Under the pieces are notes generated by a model. That model was not told the DNA's origin, ran no database searches, and saw only the letters and a program-made list of their open reading frames with translations. This document shows positions 49,100 through 64,000 of a DNA stretch of 64,000 nucleotides, one piece after another. Origin of the DNA: Yamagishiella unicocca (Eukaryota > Chlorophyta > Chlorophyceae > Chlamydomonadales > Volvocaceae); NCBI GenBank assembly GCA_003116995.1, contig BDSL01000113.1, positions 62,001 through 126,000 of the forward strand, written 5' to 3'. A program made the position numbers and the translations under genes. The first letter of the stretch is position 1. Each line of letters opens with the position of its first letter.

Positions 49100-49849
49100 A
49101 CCAATATAACGTTTATCAGGCCTTCTCTGGCTTAGGGTCAGCTGTGCGTTAGGGGAGTATTCAGGTTTCTGCTTGTATTTGATCCCTGCCCTGTTTGTCC
49201 CTGCCCTAGCCCTTGTTCTTGTCCTGGTTATCCATGTCCTGTCTGTGAGGGCGCTGGTCTCTTTCCCCGATATTCCGTTTTTTCTGCCCTTGTTAAGTTG
49301 ATTGCTCGTTGGTTGGTCATGGTTAATTGGCCCTCGGTGCTCCCGTCCATGAAACCTGTGTACGTTCTCCTTGCATGGAGTCCTAGCGTACCCCGGAAGC
49401 GGAGTCATACAATCCAACCTATCCACCCTCCCTCCTTCCCACCCTTCTTGTGCAGTCAAGCTCCTTTCGCTGAGGCTGTGGAGCCAGTGGTAGTTAAGAT
49501 CTACCTGTTGCTTTCGTGTCCTATCTCGACGTACGGGGGGCCTCCTCCCGCTCTGCCGTCTTTCCACCCTCCTCCTTCCCCTCCATCGCCGACGCCGAAA
49601 CCGGCGCCATCGCGGCCGTGGCTGCCACCCCGCCAACAGCTCCGCCACTGCCTACACCGCTGCCTCTGCCGCTGCCTTCTGCCTAAATCGCCTCCTCCGT
49701 CAGCTCCGCTGCCGTCGCCGAGTCTCAACCCTTCCATCGCGCCTTCACCGCCGCCTCCATCGCCGCGGCAGCTGCAGCCATCGGCCAAGCTGCCTCCACT
49801 CTCCACCACTGCCTCCACCGCCTCCGACGCCGACGCCACCTTCTCCGCC
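49100..49849. other. Left flank of the tandem repeat block
   Basis: Unique-looking DNA with CCCTGCCCT-type words at 49185-49215. It leads through Pro/Ser-rich codons into the minisatellite. The plus frame opening at 49298 begins MIARWLVMVNWPSVL, which is not a convincing signal peptide, and no pherophorin-type globular domain precedes the repeats. Confidence 0.5.
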
Positions 49850-51828
49850 ACCTCCTCCTCCGCCTCCGACGCCGCCGCCGCCACCACCGCCGCCTCCATC
49901 ACCACCTCCGCCGCCTCCATCACCGCCTCCGCCGCCTCCATCACCGCCTCCGCCGCCTCCATCACCGCCTCCGCCGCCTCCATCACCGCCTCCGCCGCCT
50001 CCATCACCGCCTCCGCCGCCTCCATCACCGCCTCCGCCGCCTCCATCTTCGCCGCCGCCGCCTCCCATCACCGCCGCCGCCGCCTTCCATCACCGCCGCC
50101 GCCGCCTCCATCACCGCCGCCGCCGCCTCCATCACCGCCTCCGCCGCCTCCATCACCGCCTCCGCCGCCTCCATCACCGCCTCCGCCGCCTCCATCGCCG
50201 CTGCCGCCGCCTCCATCACCGCCGCTGCCGCCTCCATCACCGCCTCCGCCGCCTCCATCACCGCCTCCGCCGCCTCCATCACCGCCTCCGCCGCCTCCAT
50301 CGCCGCCGCCGCCACCTCCCTCGCCGCCGCCGCCGCCTCCGTCACCGCCACCGCCACCTCCATCACCGCCTCCGCCGCCTCCATCACCGCCTCCGCCGCC
50401 TCCATCACCGCCTCCGCCGACTCAATCACCGCCTCCGCCGCCTCCATCACCGCCTCCGCCGCCTCCATCACCGCCTCCGCCGACTCAATCACCGCCTCCG
50501 CCGCCTCCATCACCGCCTCCGCCGCCTCCATCACCGCCGCCGCCGCCTCCATCACCGCCGCCGCCGCCTCCATCACCGCCGCCTCCGCCTCCATCACCGC
50601 CGCCGCCGCCTCCCATCACCGCCGCCGCCGCCTCAATCACTGCCGCCGCCGCCTCCATCACCGCCGCCGCCTACCATCACCGCCTCGGCCGCCTCCATCA
50701 CAGCCTCCGCCGCCTCCATCACCGCCTCCGCCGCCTCCATCACCGCCTCCGTCGCCTCCATCACCGCCTCCGCCGCCTCCATCACCGCCTCCGCCGCCTC
50801 CATCACCGCCGCCGCCTCCATCACCGCCTCCGCCGCCTCCATTACCCGCCTCCCGCCGCCTCCATCACCGCCGGTGCCGCCTCCATCACCGCCGCCGCCG
50901 CCTCCATCACCGGCCTCCGCCGCCTCCATCACCACCTCCGCCGCCTCCATCACCGCCTCCGCCGCCTCCATCACCGCCTCCGCCGCCTCCATCACCGCCT
51001 CCGCCGCCTCCATCACCGCCTCCGCCGCCTCCATCACCGCCTCCGCCGCCTCCATCACCGCCTCCGCCGCCTCCATCACCGCCTCCGCCGCCTCCATCGC
51101 CCCCGCCGCCGCCTCCATCACCGCCGCTGCCGCCTCCATCGCCGCCGCTACCGCCTCCATCACCGCCTCTGCCGCCTCCATCACAGCCTCCGCCGCCTCC
51201 ATCGCCGCCGCCGCCGCCTCCATCACCGCCTCCGCCGCCTCCATCACCACCTCCGCCGCCTCCATCACCGCCTCCGCCGCCTCCATCACCGCCTCCGCCG
51301 CCTCCATCACCGCCTCCGCCGCCTCCATCACCGCCTCCGCCGCCTCCATCACCGCCTCCGCCGCCTCCATCGCCGCTGCCGCCGCCTCCATCACCGCCGC
51401 TGCCGCCTCCATCGCCACCGCAGCCGCCTCCATCGCCGCCGCCGCCGCCTCCATCGCCGCCTCCGCCGCCTCCATCACCGCCTCCGCCGCCTCCATCGCC
51501 GCTGCCGCCGGCCGCCTCCATCACCGCCGCTGCCGCCTCCATCGCCACCGCCCACCGGCCGCCCCTCCATCGCCGCCGCCGCCGCCTCCATCACCGCCCC
51601 GCCACCTCCCGCCCCGCCGCCCCATCACCGCCTCCGCCGCCTCCATCACCGCCTCCGCCGACTCCATCACCGCCTCCGCCGCCTCCATCACCGCCTCCGC
51701 CGCCTCCATCACCGCCCCGCCGCCTCCATCACCGCCCCGCCGCCTCCCACCCCCCCCCCCTCACCGCCCCGCCGCCTCCATCACCCCCCGCCGCCCATCA
51801 CGCCGCCGCCGCCTCCATCACCGCCCCG

Positions 51829-51859
<31 letters not shown>

Positions 51860-54800
51860 CCCCCCCGCCTCCATCCCGCCCCCGCCTCCATCACCGCCTC
51901 CGCCGCCTCCATCACCGCCTCCGCCGCCTCCATCACCGCCTCCGCCGCCTCCATCACCGCCTCCCGGCCGCCTCCATCACCGCCTCCGCCGCCTCCATCA
52001 CCGCCTCCGCCGCCTCCATCACCGCCTCCGCCGCCTCCATCACCGCCTCCGCCGCCTCCATCACCGCCTCCGCCGCCTCCATCACCGCCGCCTCCGCCTC
52101 CATCACCGCCGCCGCCGCCTCCCATCACCGCCGCCGCCGCCTCAATCACTGCCGCCGCCGCCTCCATCACCGCCGCCGCCTACCATCACCGCCTCGGCCG
52201 CCTCCATCACAGCCTCCGCCGCCTCCATCACCGCCTCCGCCGCCTCCATCACCGCCTCCGTCGCCTCCATCACCGCCTCCGCCGCCTCCATCACCGCCTC
52301 CGCCGCCTCCATCACCGCCGCCGCCTCCATCACCGCCTCCGCCGCTTCCATTACCGCCTCCGCCGCCTCCATCACCGCCGGTGCCGCCTCCATCACCGCC
52401 GCCGCCGCCTCCATCACCGCCTCCGCCGCCTCCATCACCACCTCCGCCGCCTCCATCACCGCCTCCGCCGCCTCATCACCGCCTCCGCCGCCTCCATCAC
52501 CGCCTCCGCCGCCTCCATCACCGCCTCCGCCGCCTCCATCACCGCCTCCGCCGCCTCCATCACCGCCTCCGCCGCCTCCATCACCGCCTCCGCCGCCTCC
52601 ATCGCCCCCGCCGCCGCCTCCATCACCGCCGCTGCCGCCTCCATCGCCGCCGCCGCCGCCTCCATCACCGCCTCTGCCGCCTTCATCACCGCCGCCGCCG
52701 CCTCCATCGCCGCCGCCGCCGCCTCCATCGCCGCTGCCGCCACCTCCATCGCCGCCGCCGCCGCCTCCGTCATCGCCACCGCCACCTCCATCACCGCCTC
52801 CGCCGCCTCCATCACCGCCTCCGCCGACTCCATCACCGCCTCCGCCGACTCCATCACCGCCTCCGCCGACTCAATCACCGCCTCCGCCGCCTCCATTACC
52901 GCCGCCGCCTCCATCACCGCCGCCGCCGCCTCCATCACCGCCGCCGCCGCCTCCATCACCGCCGCCGCCGCCTCCATCACCGCCGCCGCCGCCTCCATCA
53001 CCGCCTCCGCCGCCTCCATCACCGCCTCCGCCGCCTCCATCACCGCCTCCGCCGCCTCCATCACCGCCTCCGCCGCCTCCATCGCCGCTGCCGCCGCCTC
53101 CATCACCGCCGCTGCCGCCTCCATCGCCACCGCAGCCGCCTCCATCGCCGCCGCCGCCGCCTCCATCGCCGCCGCCGCCACCTCCCTCGCCGCCGCCGCC
53201 GCCTCCGTCACCGCCACCGCCACCTCCATCACCGCCTCCGCCGCCTCCATCACCGCCTCCGCCGCCTCCATCACCGCCTCCGCCGACTCAATCACCGCCT
53301 CCGCCGCCTCCATTACCGCCGCCGCCTCCATCACCGCCGCCGCCGCCTCCATCACCGCCGCCGCCGCCTCCATCACCACCGCCGCCGCCTCCATCACCGC
53401 CGCCGCCGCCTCCATCACCGCCTCCGCCGCCTCCATCACCGCCTCCGCCGCCTCCATCACCGCCTCCGCCGCCTCCATCACCGCCTCCGCCGCCTCCATC
53501 GCCGCTGCCGCCGCCTCCATCACCGCCGCTGCCGCCTCCATCGCCACCGCAGCCGCCTCCATCGCCGCCGCCGCCGCCTCCATCGCCGCCGCCGCCACCT
53601 CCCTCGCCGCCGCCGCCGCCTCCGTCACCGCCACCGCCACCTCCATCACCGCCTCCGCCGCCTCCATCACCGCCTCCGCCGCCTCCATCACCGCCTCCGC
53701 CGACTCAATCAACGCCTCCGCCGCCTCCATTACCGCCGCCGCCTCCATCACCGCCTCCGCCGCCTCCATCACCGCCGCCGCCGCCTCCATCACCGCCGCC
53801 GCCGCCTCCATCACCGCCGCCTCCGCCTCCATCACCGCCGCCGCCGCCTCCCATCACCGCCGCCGCCGCCTCCCATCACCGCCGCCGCCGCCTTCCATCA
53901 CCGCCGCCGCCGCCTCCATCACCGACGCCGACGCCACCTTCTCCGCCACCTCCTCCTCCGCCTCCGACGCCGCCGCCGCCACCACCGCCGCCTCCATCAC
54001 CACCTCCGCCGCCTCCATCACCGCCGCCGCCGCCTCCCATCACCGCCGCCGCCGCCTCCCATCACCGCCGCCGCCGCCTTCCATCACCGCCGCCGCCGCC
54101 TCCATCACCGACGCCGACGCCACCTTCTCCGCCACCTCCTCCTCCGCCTCCGACGCCGCCGCCGCCACCACCGCCGCCTCCATCACCACCTCCGCCGCCT
54201 CCATCACCGCCTCCGCCGCCTCCATCACCGCCTCCGCCGCCTCCATTACCGCCTCCGCCGCCTCCATCACCGCCGGTGCCGCCTCCATCACCGCCGCCGC
54301 CGCCTCCATCACCGCCTCCGCCGCCTCCATCACCACCTCCGCCGCCTCCATCACCGCCTCCGCCGCCTCATCACCGCCTCCGCCGCCTCCATCACCGCCT
54401 CCGCCGCCTCCATCACCGCCTCCGCCGCCTCCATCACCGCCTCCGCCGCCTCCGTCACCGCCTCCGCCGCCTCCATCGCCCCCGCCGCCGCCTCCATCAC
54501 CGCCGCTGCCGCCTCCATCGCCGCCGCCGCCGCCTATCTACATCACCGCCTCTGCCGCCTTCATCACCGCCTCCGCCGCCTCCATCGCCACCGCCGCCGC
54601 CTCCATCGCCGCTGCCGCCACCTCCATCGCCGCCGCCGCCGCCTCCGTCACCGCCACCGCCACCTCCATCACCGCCTCCGCCGCCTCCATCACCGCCTCC
54701 GCCGCCTCCATCACCGCCTCCGCCGACTCCATCATCGCCTCCGCCGACTCAATCACCGCCTCCGCCGCCTCCATTACCGCCGCCGCCTCCATCACCGCCG

Positions 54801-56870
54801 CCGCCGCCTCCATCACCACCGCCGCCGCCTCCATCACCGCCGCCGCCGCCTCCATCACCGCCGCCGCCGCCTCCATCACCGCCGCCTGCCGCCGCCTCCA
54901 TCACCGCCTCCGCCGCCTCCATCACCACCTCCGCCGCCTCCATCACCGCCTCCGCCGCCTCATCACCGCCTCCGCCGCCTCCATCACCGTCTCTGCCGCC
55001 TCCATCACCGCCTCCGCCGCCTCCATCACCGCCGCCGCCGCCTCCATCACCGCCGCCGCCGCCTCCATCACCGCCGCCTCCGCCTCCATCACCGCCGCCG
55101 CCGCCTCCCATCACCGCCGCCGCCGCCTCCCATCACCGCCGCCGCCGCCTTCCATCACCGCCGCCGCCGCCTCCATCACCGACGCCGACGCCACCTTCTC
55201 CGCCACCTCCTCCTCCGCCTCCGACGCCGCCGCCGCCACCACCGCCGCCTCCATCACCACCTCCGCCGCCTCCATCACCGCCGCCGCCGCCTCCCATCAC
55301 CGCCGCCGCCGCCTCCCATCACCGCCGCCGCCGCCTTCCATCACCGCCGCCGCCGCCTCCATCACCGACGCCGACGCCACCTTCTCCGCCACCTCCTCCT
55401 CCGCCTCCGACGCCGCCGCCGCCACCACCGCCGCCTCCATCACCACCTCCGCCGCCTCCATCACCGCCTCCGCCGCCTCCATCACCGCCTCCGCCGCCTC
55501 CATTACCGCCTCCGCCGCCTCCATCACCGCCGGTGCCGCCTCCATCACCGCCTCCGCCGACTCCATCACCGCCTCCGCCGACTCCATCATCGCCTCCGCC
55601 GACTCAATCACCGCCTCCGCCGCCTCCATTACCGCCGCCGCCTCCATCACCGCCGCCGCCGCCTCCATCACCACCGCCGCCGCCTCCATCACCGCCGCCG
55701 CCGCCTCCATCACCGCCGCCGCCGCCTCCATCACCGCCGCCGCCGCCTCCATCACCGCCTCCGCCGCCTCCATCACCACCTCCGCCGCCTCCATCACCGC
55801 CTCCGCCGCCTCATCACCGCCTCCGCCGCCTCCATCACCGTCTCTGCCGCCTCCATCACCGCCTCCGCCGCCTCCATCACCGCCTCCGCCGCCTCCATCA
55901 CCGCCTCCGCCGCCTCCATCACCGCCTCCGCCGCCTCCATCACCGCCTCCGCCGCCTCCATCACCGCCTCCGTCGCCTCCATCACCGCCTCCGCCGCCTC
56001 CATCACCGCCTCCGCCGCCTCCATCACCGCCGCCGCCTCCATCGCCGCCTCCGCCGCCTCCATCGCCACCGCAGCCGCCTCCATCACCGCCTCTGCCGCC
56101 TTCATCACCGCCGCCGCCACCTCCATCGCCGCCGCTGCCTCCGTCACCGCCACCGCCACCTCCATCACCGCCTCCGCCGCCTCCATCACCGCCTCCGCCG
56201 ACTCCATCACCGCCCGCCGACTCAATCACCGCCTCCGCCGCCTCCATTACCGCCGCCGCCTCCATCACCGCCGCCGCTGCCTCCATCACCGCCGCCGCCG
56301 CCTCCATCACCGCCGCCGCCGCCTCCATCACCGCCGCCGCCGCCTCCATCACCGCCTCTGCCGCCTCCATCACCGCCTCCGCCGCCTCCATCACCGCCTC
56401 CGCCGCCTCCATCACCGCCGCCGCCGCCTCCATCACCGCCGCCGCCGCCTCCATCACCACCTCCGCCGCCTCCATCACCGCCTCCGCCGCCTCCATCACC
56501 GCCTCCACCGCCTCCATCACCGCCGCCGCCGCCTCCATCACCGCCGCCGCCGCCTCCATCACCGCCGCCGCCGCCTCCATCACCGCCGCCGCCGCCTCCA
56601 TCACCGCCGCCGCCGCCTCCATCACCGCCGCCGCCGCCTCCATCACCGCCGCCGCCGCCTCCATCACCGCCGCCGCCGCCTCCATCACCGCCGCCGCCGC
56701 CTCCATCACCGCCGCCGCCTAAATCACTGCCGCCGCCGCCTAAATCACTGCCGCCGCCGCCTCCATCACCGCCGCCGCCGCCTCAATCACCGCCGCCGCC
56801 GCCTCAATCACCGCCGCCGCCGCCTCAATCACCGCCGCCGCCGCCTCAATCACCGCCGCCGCCGCCTCCG
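49850..56870 (+). repeat. 21-bp minisatellite, about 7 kb
   Basis: The basic unit CCATCACCGCCTCCGCCGCC plus T repeats about 330 times with substitutions such as CCATCGCCGCCGCCGCCGCC and CGACTCAATCACCGCCTCCG. Because 21 is a multiple of three and the unit has no stop, long frames are open on both strands: SPPPPPP, ITASAAS or HHRLRRL on plus, MEAAEAV-type on minus. Longest is 49298-56722. The amino-acid character switches between these three along one frame wherever the period slips, which argues against a real Pro-rich wall protein. Higher-order structure is visible: blocks with CCGACTCAATCACCG recur at 52866, 53286 and 53700 (about 420 bp = 20 units), and blocks with ACCGACGCCGACGCCACC at about 53922, 54104, 55182 and 55364. 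Confidence 0.95.
51540..51990 (+). other. Irregular, poly-C containing part of the minisatellite
   Basis: Units are broken (GCCGCCGGCCGCC, CCACCGGCCGCCCC) and a C-run of about 28 bases lies near 51833-51860. The regular period resumes after about 51890. All three plus frames shift here. It looks like poor consensus quality. Confidence 0.6.
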
Positions 56871-57089
56871 CCTCCACCTCCGCCGCCGCCGCCGCCTCCA
56901 CCACCTCCATCACTGCCTCCGCCGCCGCCTCCTCCTCCGCCGCCTACAGCTATGCCTACGCCTCCACCGCCGCCTATGCCCCTCCTCCGCCGCCTCCTTC
57001 GCCATCTCCACCGCCACCGCCGCTTCCGCCTCCACCGCCGCCTATGCCACCCTATCCTCCTCCACGTCCGCCACCGCCATGGCCGCCGC

Positions 57090-61326
<4,237 letters not shown>

Positions 61327-64000
61327 AATGTTCCAAAAACTCGAGAAAAACGGCAAAACGTTAGGGTCACTTTTCTACCGTAAAATGTTTGCATTTTGTT
61401 GTACGGATATGAGATAAAAGGTAGAACACGTCGTGGGGAACATAACAGTGCTTGTGGGACATCGAACAACACTGTGGCTGGCGAGATATGAATTTTCAAA
61501 CTTTCCTAAAAGTGACGTCAAATGTTCCAAAAACTCGAGAAAAACGGCAAAACGTTAGGGTCACTTTTCTACCGTAAAACGTTTGCCATTTGTTGTACGG
61601 ATATGAGATAAAAGGTAGAACACGTCGTGGGGAACATAACAGTGCTTGTGGGACATCGAACAACACTGTGGCTGGCGAGATATGAATTTTCAAAATTTCC
61701 TAAAAGTGACGTCAAATTTCCAAAAACTCGAGAAAATCGGCAAAACGTTAGGGTCACTTTTCTACCGTAAAATGTTTGCATTTTGTTGTACGGATATGAG
61801 ATAAAAGGTAGAACACGTCGTGGGGAACATAACAGTGCTTGTGGGACATCGAACAACACTGTGGCTGGCGAGATATGAATTTTCAAAATTTCCTAAAAGT
61901 GACGTCAAATGTTCCAAAAACTCGAGAAAATAGGCAAAACGTTAGGGTCACTGTTCTACCGTAAAACGTTTGCCATTTGTTGTACGGATATGAGATAAAA
62001 GGTAGAACACGTCGTGGGGAACATAACAGTGCTTGTGGGACATCGAACAACGCTGTGGTTGGCGAGATATGAATTTTCAAAATTTCCTAAAAGTGACGTC
62101 AAATGTTCCAAAAACTCGAGAAAATCGGCAAAACGTTAGGGTCACTTTTCTACCGTAAAACGTTTGCCATTTGTTGTACGGATATGAGATAAAAGGTAGA
62201 ACACGTCGTGGGGAACATAACAGTGCTTGTGGGACATCGAACAACACTGTGGTTGGCGAGATATGAATTTTCAAAATTTTCTAAAATTGACGTCAAATGT
62301 TCCAAAAACTCGAGAAAATAGGCAAAACGTTAGGGTCACTGTTCTACCGTAAAACGTTTGCCATTTGTTGTACGGATATGAGATAAAAGGTAGAACACGT
62401 CGTGGGGAACATAACAGTGCTTGTGGGACATCGAACAACGCTGTGGTTGGCGAGATATGAATTTTCAAAATTTCCTAAAAGTGACGTCAAATGTTCCAAA
62501 AACTCGAGAAAATCGGCAAAACGTTAGGGTCACTTTTCTACCGTAAAACGTTTGCCATTTGTTGTACGGATATAAGATAAAAGGTAGAACACGTCGTAAG
62601 GAACATAACAGTGCTTGTGGGACATCGAATAACGCTGTGGTTGTCGAGATATGAATTTTCAAAATTTCCTAAAAGTGACGTCAAATGTTCCAAAAACTCG
62701 AGAAAATCGGCAAAACGTTAGGGTCACTGTTCTACCGTAAAACGTTTGCCATTTGTTGTACGGATATAAGATAAAAGGTAGAACACGTCGTGGGGAACAT
62801 AACAGTGCTTGTGGGACATCGAATAACGCTGTGGTTGGCGAGATATGAATTTTCAAAATTTCCTAAAAGTGACGTCAAATGTTCCAAAAACTCGAGAAAA
62901 TCGGCAAAACGTTAGGGTCAATGTTCTACCGTAAAACGTTTGCCATTTGTTGTACGGATATGAGATAAAAGGTAGAACACGTCGTGGGGAACATAACAGT
63001 GCTTGTGGGACATCGAACAACACTGTGGTTGGCGAGATATGAATTTTCAAAATTTTCTAAAATTGACGTCAAATGTTCCAAAAACTCGAGAAAATAGGCA
63101 AAACGTTAGGGTCACTGTTCTACCGTAAAACGTTTGCCATTTGTTGTACGGATATGAGATAAAAGGTAGAACACGTCGTGGGGAACATAACAGTGCTTGT
63201 GGGACATCGAACAACGCTGTGGTTGGCGAGATATGAATTTTCAAAATTTCCTAAAAGTGACGTCAAATGTTCCAAAAACTCGAGAAAATCGGCAAAACGT
63301 TAGGGTCACTTTTCTACCGTAAAACGTTTGCCATTTGTTGTACGGATATAAGATAAAAGGTAGAACACGTCGTAAGGAACATAACAGTGCTTGTGGGACA
63401 TCGAATAACGCTGTGGTTGTCGAGATATGAATTTTCAAAATTTCCTAAAAGTGACGTCAAATGTTCCAAAAACTCGAGAAAATCGGCAAAACGTTAGGGT
63501 CACTGTTCTACCGTAAAACGTTTGCCATTTGTTGTACGGATATAAGATAAAAGGTAGAACACGTCGTGGGGAACATAACAGTGCTTGTGGGACATCGAAT
63601 AACGCTGTGGTTGGCGAGATATGAATTTTCAAAATTTCCTAAAAGTGACGTCAAATGTTCCAAAAACTCGAGAAAATCGGCAAAACGTTAGGGTCAATGT
63701 TCTACCGTAAAACGTTTGCCATTTGTTGTACGGATATGAGATAAAAGGTAGAACACGTCGTGGGGAACATAACAGTGCTTGTGGGACATCGAACAACACT
63801 GTGGTTGGCGAGATATGAATTTTCAAAATTTTCTAAAATTGACGTCAAATGTTCCAAAAACTCGAGAAAATAGGCAAAACGTTAGGGTCACTGTTCTACC
63901 GTAAAACGTTTGCCATTTGTTGTACGGATATGAGATAAAAGGTAGAACACGTCGTGGGGAACATAACAGTGCTTGTGGGACATCGAACAACGCTGTGGTT
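61327..64000 (+). repeat. 194-bp satellite array with 776-bp higher-order repeat
   Basis: About 14 monomers, beginning immediately at the end of a CATACA tract and running off the window. Each monomer carries CAAATGTTCCAAAAACTCGA, GGCAAAACGTTAGGGTCAC, GTTGTACGGATATGAGATAA and GGAACATAACAGTGCTTGTG. The monomer is AT-richer than everything around it. From about 62274 diagnostic variants recur every 776 bp: CGTAAGG at 62595 and 63371, and the AAAATTGACGTC junction near 62284 and 63060. This is four monomers per higher-order unit. The first monomers at the left edge do not follow the four-type order. A minus frame of about 65 codons is open in each monomer but lacks an ATG, so coding is unlikely. 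Confidence 0.97.

What the first reader, a model, noticed from the sequence alone, without database searches (positions are those of the whole stretch)
61327..64000. Satellite with a four-monomer higher-order repeat
A 194-bp monomer array becomes an exact 4 x 194 = 776-bp higher-order repeat after a few irregular edge monomers. Homogenised higher-order units flanked by diverged edge monomers are characteristic of centromeric alpha-satellite-type arrays and are seldom described in green algae. The AT-rich monomer contrasts with the GC-rich flanks.
Basis: partly seen in the sequence, partly recalled or inferred. Interest (0 to 1): 0.8.

Follow-up and report, generated by a model that had tools for sequence, protein, structure and literature searches.

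The report
Possible satellite centromeres in volvocine alga
The repeat at the end of this window belongs to a family of short AT-rich repeat blocks at about fifteen places in a green alga's genome, mostly framed by C-rich and G-rich simple repeats that mirror each other; they may be centromeres, but that is untested.

Summary
The array is real: 194-bp monomers from window 61,325, about 97% alike, ending about 1.4 kb past the window (21 copies, 4 kb) inside a 315-kb contig. The exact 776-bp higher-order repeat is one four-monomer stretch present twice (62,294-63,845); it fades outside. A four-monomer period recurs in one other array (C1167); others show periods of 2, 3 or none.

Genome-wide the family is more interesting. 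A 26-bp core occurs 724 times in 133 Mb, in at least 17 contigs, about 15 loci after merging likely duplicates. Eleven of these carry both 194-bp monomers and a related 207-bp monomer. Monomers are homogenised locus by locus. DNA abutting the arrays is strand-asymmetric in one sense: outward, G exceeds C at 17 of 17 GC-bearing ends, and T exceeds A at 7 of 7 ATT ends. In the DNA read, no array contig holds a long telomere tract.

Best reading: compact centromere cores that are also constitutive replication origins, as proposed for Candida from a similar skew switch. This mechanism is inferred; chromatin and replication data are lacking. The window's own array is the most diverged, lacks a 207-bp block, and its skew rule fails farther out, so it may be a relic. 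Host: a volvocine, possibly Yamagishiella unicocca.

The parts
61325..64000 (+). 194-bp satellite array, 13 complete monomers and a partial one; continues outside the window to about 65,384 (C113:127,384), 21 copies in all
   Evidence: Tandem Repeats Finder; monomer split; core copies in contig C113; extension read from L002
62294..63069 (+). first copy of the 776-bp four-monomer unit
   Evidence: zero mismatches to the next copy
63070..63845 (+). second copy of the 776-bp unit, identical to the first
   Evidence: exact lag-776 run 62,148-64,044
61325..61905 (+). three irregular edge monomers (194, 194, 193 bp), 5-13 mismatches from monomers 3-19
   Evidence: distance matrix; lengths
61228..61326 (.). 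(ACACAT)n microsatellite abutting the array
   Evidence: over the 200 bp next to the array the strand read outward has GC skew +0.64 and TA skew +0.21
57100..61227 (.). C-rich (TGCCCC) minisatellites alternating with (ACACAT)-type microsatellites, the array's left flank
   Evidence: C-skewed bins run 49,750-61,250
49816..56945 (.). 7.1-kb array of a 21-bp C-rich minisatellite (about 342 copies) continuing the C-skewed flank

Best explanation
The array belongs to a family of compact satellite loci (a block of 194-bp and usually a block of related 207-bp AT-rich monomers, 4-14 kb in all) present at roughly 15 places. I propose that these are the centromere cores of this alga and that each core also acts as a constitutive replication origin. 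Proposed working: kinetochore chromatin sits on the AT-rich, near-nucleosome-length monomers; forks start in or at the core and run outward in every cell cycle; strand-biased mutation and slippage then leave G+T-rich microsatellites on the leading strand on both sides, so GC skew switches from negative to positive across the core. Gene conversion and unequal exchange within a locus homogenise its monomers and now and then make short multimer duplications such as the 776-bp one. Shown: the array anatomy, the number of copies, locus-private homogenisation, the skew switch next to the arrays, and no long telomere tract in the DNA read on these contigs. Inferred: kinetochore binding, origin firing, one locus per chromosome, and slippage as the cause of the flanks. 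The window's own array (C113) may be an inactive or decaying member.
For: 724 core copies, backward-pattern control 0, in at least 17 contigs. 194- and 207-bp monomers occur together at 11 of about 15 loci, in either relative orientation. Nearest neighbour lies in the same locus for 257 of 261 monomers of the 194 type and 297 of 299 of the 207 type after merging contigs taken as one locus (chance 0.09 and 0.12); without merging, in the same contig for 234 of 261 and 281 of 300, most misses falling between the contigs I merge. Adjacent 200 bp read outward: G over C at 17 of 17 GC-bearing ends (16 of 16 after merging one shared end; sign test 1.5e-5), T over A at 7 of 7 ATT ends (6 of 6 merged). 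In C145 the skew is about -0.4 over 6 kb on one side and about +0.96 over nearly 7 kb on the other. C774, C145 and C17 show a GC minimum at the array inside GC-richer flanks. In C. albicans a skew switch with a local GC drop marks all centromeres and was tied to earliest-firing origins (PMC2924309, passages). If the host is Y. unicocca, the Chlamydomonas centromere element was not found there (PMC8226300, passages).
Against: No CENH3, Hi-C, FISH or replication data. The chromosome number is unknown to me, so one per chromosome is untested. The window's own locus breaks part of the pattern: 81-86% identical to the other 15 consensus sequences, no 207-bp block, TA skew near zero beyond 500 bp, flanks not inverted copies, and from about 4 kb to its right the DNA is C-rich again in both stretches read, 131-136 and 150-158 kb of the contig. 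C17 also has 194-bp units only. One end (C145 left) has the opposite TA skew. Skew can also come from transcription, and in C. albicans it was seen at many telomeres and two internal origins too, while S. pombe centromeres and neocentromeric loci lacked it (PMC2924309, passages). The CENP-C family search found nothing, though it is weak for a split, divergent gene. Only 4 of the 16 contigs whose length I saw exceed 100 kb; the rest are unplaced and may include duplicates or chimeras. Chlamydomonas centromeres are 252-480 kb LINE clusters (PMC10030371, passages), far larger than these arrays.
Confidence: 0.5

Rival explanations
1. Ordinary heterochromatic satellite without centromere function, perhaps pericentromeric or at scattered silent sites, homogenised by unequal exchange; its flanks are just slippage-prone simple repeats.
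For: Small arrays, local multimers, DNA read around C113 rich in many unrelated tandem repeats; no functional data.
Against: Indifferent flanks should not obey one orientation rule at 17 of 17 and 7 of 7 ends; 194 and 207 blocks recur together at 11 of about 15 loci.
Confidence: 0.22
2. The arrays are strong replication origins or bidirectional transcription initiation zones, not centromeres; skew comes from outward forks or outward transcription.
For: Skew switch with G and T excess on the outward strand.
Against: Would not by itself explain a limited set of locus-private satellite arrays; an AT-rich satellite is not needed for an origin.
Confidence: 0.12
3. Subtelomeric satellite comparable to the Sultan repeats of Chlamydomonas (recalled), with G-rich flanks.
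For: Arrays often lie near contig ends; the outward G+T strand is telomere-like; one locus (C951/C1129) has a short (TTTTAGGG)n tract; C. albicans telomeres also show skew (PMC2924309, passages).
Against: Telomere arrays listed (capped list) are on other contigs; the C104 chromosome end has no satellite in the 1.3 kb before its telomere; C113's array is 123 kb from one contig end and about 188 kb from the other; flanks are outward on both sides, not one; C17 runs 15 kb past the array without a telomere tract.
Confidence: 0.09
4. Internal tandem repeats of a transposable element.
For: Several dispersed copies.
Against: Array ends fall at many different monomer phases and abut different simple repeats; by eye no common termini among the ends printed; monomers are locus-private rather than shared.
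Confidence: 0.04
5. Flanks grew by outward, 3'-end repeat addition at array edges (telomerase-like healing or break-induced replication), so the orientation records repair rather than replication.
For: Several microsatellites begin with a few bases shared with the monomer edge (GGGT, GGCAT/TATT, CCGTAA/TTATT); (TTTTAGGG)n follows (ATT)n at one locus.
Against: Microhomology was judged by eye and not tested against chance; most flanks are not telomere repeats.
Confidence: 0.03

Closest known systems
Small regional centromeres of Candida albicans and C. dubliniensis with GC-skew switch and early origin (PMC2924309, passages read)
   Same: GC and T/A skew reverse at the core; local GC minimum inside GC-richer flanks; core of a few kb
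   Different: Candida centromeres share no sequence with each other; here a shared 194/207-bp satellite fills the core and the flanks are simple repeats with very strong skew; replication and Cse4 data exist there, none here
ZeppL LINE centromeres of Chlamydomonas reinhardtii (PMC8226300, PMC10030371, passages)
   Same: Repeat clusters in a volvocalean alga at a limited set of loci
   Different: Made of LINE clusters, 252-480 kb; here AT-rich satellite of 4-14 kb; ZeppL reported as not found in Y. unicocca and V. carteri
Transposon-based centromeres of Chlorella, Coccomyxa, Chromochloris (PMC11005252, passages)
   Same: Green algal centromeres
   Different: That paper reports transposons, and no tandem satellites in its two Chlorella genomes' centromeres; here the core is a satellite
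Alpha-satellite and other higher-order-repeat centromeres (recalled)
   Same: Monomer near nucleosome length, AT-rich, locus-private homogenisation, short multimers in some arrays
   Different: No long homogenised higher-order array; kb rather than Mb; flanking strand-skewed microsatellites

Membership tests
Higher-order-repeat centromeric satellite (alpha-satellite type) | Tandem AT-rich monomer of roughly nucleosome length | tested here: met
   194 and 207 bp, GC 0.35-0.41 in C774, C145 and C17
Higher-order-repeat centromeric satellite (alpha-satellite type) | Long homogenised higher-order arrays | tested here: not met
   About 2.4 copies of the 776-bp unit, fading outside the window; of 24 blocks tested, 7 show a favoured multimer lag of 2, 3, 4 or 5 at uncorrected p below 0.05
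Small regional centromere with skew switch (Candida type) | GC skew negative to positive across the core, with same-sense T/A skew | tested here: met
   At 200 bp: GC 17 of 17 GC-bearing ends; T/A 23 of 24 ends, exception C145 left. C113 fails from about 4 kb on its right
Small regional centromere with skew switch (Candida type) | CENH3 (Cse4) binding | not testable with these tools
   No chromatin data
Small regional centromere with skew switch (Candida type) | One locus per chromosome | tested here: inconclusive
   About 15 loci; chromosome number not found in the searches made; most contigs unplaced
Small regional centromere with skew switch (Candida type) | Early replication origin at the core | not testable with these tools
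   No replication data
ZeppL/LINE or other transposon centromere of green algae | Core made of LINE or LTR elements | tested here: not met
   The cores read are tandem 194/207-bp units throughout; no transposon library was searched against the flanks
Subtelomeric satellite | Arrays adjacent to telomere arrays at chromosome ends | tested here: not met
   No long telomere tract in the DNA read of 16 satellite contigs, one short tract at the C951/C1129 locus; listed telomere arrays lie on other contigs (capped). Contigs were read in part only
Transposable element with internal repeats | Fixed termini shared by copies | tested here: not met
   Array ends at different monomer phases, judged by eye
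Monocentric CENH3/CENP-C kinetochore in this genome | CENP-C gene | tested here: inconclusive
   PF11699: no match, six-frame without introns; control genomes give only below-cut-off hits

The most novel reading that the evidence does not exclude
Centromeres of a volvocine green alga are compact satellite cores (194- plus 207-bp blocks) that serve as constitutive bidirectional origins, written in the DNA as inverted, extremely strand-skewed microsatellite flanks: a satellite version of the skew-switch centromere described in yeasts, in place of the LINE-type centromere of related algae.
Probability: 0.4. Interest if true: 0.82.

Novelty: new variant of a known kind. Interest (0 to 1): 0.6.

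Why it matters
The green algal centromeres described in the papers whose passages I read are transposon-based (PMC11005252, PMC8226300, PMC10030371). Y. unicocca and V. carteri lack the ZeppL element used elsewhere as a centromere marker (PMC8226300, passage). If these loci are centromeres they would supply candidate sequences for such an alga, point to a turnover from LINE to satellite among related algae, and offer a sequence-only signature (inverted strand-skewed flanks around an AT-rich core) for finding centromeres and constitutive origins in other assemblies.

Tried and rejected
Rejected: alpha-satellite-like long higher-order array. Rejected: the decayed last units of C113 and C17 as relics of the 207-bp type; they score about equally against 194 and 207, so they are left unassigned. 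Tried: half-monomer dimer origin of the 194-bp unit; no lag stands out (best 0.345, median 0.268). Tried: a conserved protein box in the monomer; the longest run invariant in the 25 consensus sequences used is 9 bp and is not significant (shuffle p 0.18), so no binding-site claim is made. Tried: naming the species by protein; one window open frame gave 9 hits, the 6 named ones volvocine, at 57-75% identity, none near identity. Tried: CENP-C family search, no match. Pfam on seven open frames from the window and C17: no family. Chromosome number: not found. Subtelomere paper PMC8287924 is not held, so Sultan repeats are recalled only. A first overlap script failed because I assumed minus-strand loci were turned; corrected. 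A BLAST step with unsupported gap costs failed inside and was repeated.

Counting limits: 617 of 724 core copies are in the DNA I held. C1268 was found but never fetched; parts of C645, C797, C1197, C1248 and C1167 were not read; one or two further contigs may be missing. In one search the one C1248 unit of the 207 type was dropped; C951/C1129, C704 left/C1197 and C704 right/C616 were merged as same locus, the C704 split being my choice of position; one search repeats the count without merging. C1315 and C1394 share an identical 194-bp consensus and were kept apart; ties counted as same locus. Of the 15 loci, C113 and C17 show 194-bp units only, C1248 shows 194-bp units and a single hybrid 207-length unit, and C1268 is known only from search hits of the 207 type.

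Full report
1. Observation. Tandem Repeats Finder reports one array at window 61,325-64,000, period 194, 13.8 copies, 97% matches. GC drops from 0.58-0.68 in the 4 kb to the left to 0.40 in the array. Read into the neighbouring DNA, the array ends about 1.4 kb beyond the window: 21 core copies, C113:123,325 to about 127,384, then a decayed unit and a short (GGT)n stretch. The contig is 314,995 bases long, so the array is internal in it. The four monomers at 62,294-63,069 are repeated exactly at 63,070-63,845; the exact lag-776 match is a run of 1,121 bp spanning 62,148-64,044. Lag 4 beats the other lags tested and no shuffle of 20,000 is as good. Past the window the lag-4 match fades. The higher-order repeat here is one four-monomer duplication, about 2.4 units. 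Among 24 single-type blocks tested across the family, lag 4 is also clearly favoured in the 194-bp block of C1167; C17 and C1248 favour lag 2, C1394 (207-bp) lag 3, C145 (194-bp) lag 5, C1129 (194-bp) weakly lag 3; the other 17 favour no lag at uncorrected p below 0.05. In C173 a mixed stretch of about 998 bp is repeated, by the spacings. Short multimers are thus a habit of the family, not a long homogenised array.

2. Family in the genome. A conserved 26-bp core, with up to 3 mismatches, occurs 724 times (224 forward, 500 reverse; backward-pattern control 0). DNA and pattern searches place copies in 17 contigs: C17, C113, C145, C173, C616, C645, C704, C774, C797, C951, C1129, C1167, C1197, C1248, C1268, C1315, C1394. 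I held 617 of the 724 copies. Two related monomers exist, 194 (or 195) bp and 207 (206) bp; the 207-bp type carries a 10-bp subrepeat of 3.3 copies. After merging contigs that share private variants or junctions (C951 with C1129, C704 left with C1197, C704 right with C616) about 15 loci remain; C1315 and C1394 may also be one. Eleven of the 15 carry both types in the DNA seen, in either relative orientation, for example C145 207(-)/194(+), C774 207(-)/195(+), C951 194(+)/207(+), C797 207/194, C173 207/mixed/195, C704 194(-)/207(+)/194(+). C704 may be a chimera, since its right part matches C616 and its left part C1197. C17 and C113 have 194-bp units only; C1248 shows one hybrid 207-length unit; C1268 was not read.

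3. Homogenisation. The nearest relative of a monomer lies in the same locus for 257 of 261 (194 type) and 297 of 299 (207 type), against 0.09 and 0.12 expected from group sizes; mean differences are 6.6 within and 20.6 between loci (194) and 4.9 and 12.5 (207). Without merging contigs the figures are 234 of 261 and 281 of 300, most misses falling between contigs merged as one locus. 194-type consensus sequences are 89-100% alike between contigs, except C113, which is 81-86% from all 15 others.

4. Flanks. Reading outward from each array end, the adjacent 200 bp have G over C at 17 of 17 ends that hold G+C, and T over A at 7 of 7 ends made of (ATT)n; T over A holds at 23 of all 24 ends, the exception being C145 left. 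After merging ends of the same locus these are 16 of 16 and 6 of 6. The orientation of the monomers does not matter. In C145 the skew is about -0.4 for 6 kb to the left and about +0.96 for nearly 7 kb to the right; in C17 it is -0.94 to -0.99 over the 2 kb to the left and +0.8 to +1.0 over about 2 kb to the right. Left and right flanks look like reverse complements by shared 8-mers in C17, C173, C797, C774 and C951 (45-136 shared, 0-1 on the same strand), weakly in C145 (4 against 0), and not in C113 (9 against 11). C113 also fails at distance: its left flank is C-rich for 11.5 kb, but to its right, after about four copies of a roughly 510-bp repeat seen by eye, a C-rich minisatellite fills the DNA read at 131-136 and 150-158 kb, and its T/A skew is near zero beyond 500 bp. 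In the 64-kb window itself the only run of strongly skewed bins longer than 250 bp is the one that abuts the array. Eight of the 32 ends of the 16 contigs read, and both ends of C1268, could not be examined because the contig ends there, reads N, or was not fetched.

5. Position. In the DNA read of 16 satellite contigs there is no long telomere tract; one short (TTTTAGGG)n tract was found in C951 and one in C1129, which I take as the same locus. A three-unit telomere match lies inside C17 at 733,327, some 600 kb from its array (capped list). On C104 the 1.3 kb before the telomere hold no satellite. C17 continues 15 kb beyond the array without a telomere tract.

6. Host. One open frame of the window gave nine protein hits at 57-75% identity; the six with species names are volvocine algae. 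The assembly (133,378,104 bases, 1,415 contigs) is close to but not the same as the published Yamagishiella unicocca plus-strain assembly (134,234,618 bases, 1,461 contigs, PacBio HGAP3; PMC6123790, passages). I think it likely but unproven that this is the host.

7. Explanation. [quoted passage not shown] The same paper saw skew at many telomeres and at two internal origins, and none at S. pombe centromeres, so skew alone does not prove a centromere. I propose centromere cores doubling as constitutive origins (0.5). Rivals are plain heterochromatic satellite (0.22), origin or transcription zones without centromere role (0.12), subtelomeric satellite (0.09), transposon-internal repeats (0.04) and outward repeat addition at array edges (0.03). 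Function is not shown for any locus, and the window's own array is the least typical and may be a relic.

8. Known and new. Green algal centromeres in the papers whose passages I read are transposon-based (PMC8226300, PMC10030371, PMC11005252). PMC11005252 states that its two Chlorella genomes lack tandem satellites in their centromeres. PMC8226300 found no ZeppL element in Y. unicocca or V. carteri. The searches listed no paper on this satellite; apart from PMC8226300, whose passages discuss Y. unicocca centromeres only to say ZeppL was not found, none of the listed titles is about Yamagishiella centromeres (listings seen; PMC4856071, which names both words, was not opened). The library lacks most subscription journals. 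On this basis I rate it a new variant of a known kind.

Noticed in passing
window 49816-56945: 7.1-kb array of a 21-bp C-rich minisatellite (about 342 copies) that keeps several reading frames open over thousands of bases (one ORF of 2,474 aa, mostly repeats), probably not a gene.
   Followed up: no
L021 (C113:128000-135999) and L033 (C113:150000-157999): About four copies of a roughly 510-bp tandem repeat right of the array, then a C-rich minisatellite built on GGACCCCTGCCTCAGTCCCC with interspersed other blocks, seen in both stretches read.
   Followed up: partly
L031:3328-6127 (C17, near its end): A 259-bp tandem repeat, 10.8 copies, 97% matches.
   Followed up: no
L028 (C951 right flank): (ATT)n of about 0.7 kb followed by a short (TTTTAGGG)n tract and then a G-rich microsatellite: an interstitial telomere-like stretch with its G-strand pointing away from the satellite. 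A short telomere-like tract was also counted in C1129.
   Followed up: partly
C704 left flank (L025) and C1197 left flank (L038): A recurring unit in the C-rich flank (containing ATAACCATATGAATG.TGCCCAGAGGA) shared by both contigs, which helped to see them as one locus.
   Followed up: partly
C616 (first 2,500 bases) and C1248 (just below 5,001): Runs of N; C616 is exactly 15,000 bases and C1167 exactly 7,500, which may reflect consensus windows without calls or withheld stretches.
   Followed up: no
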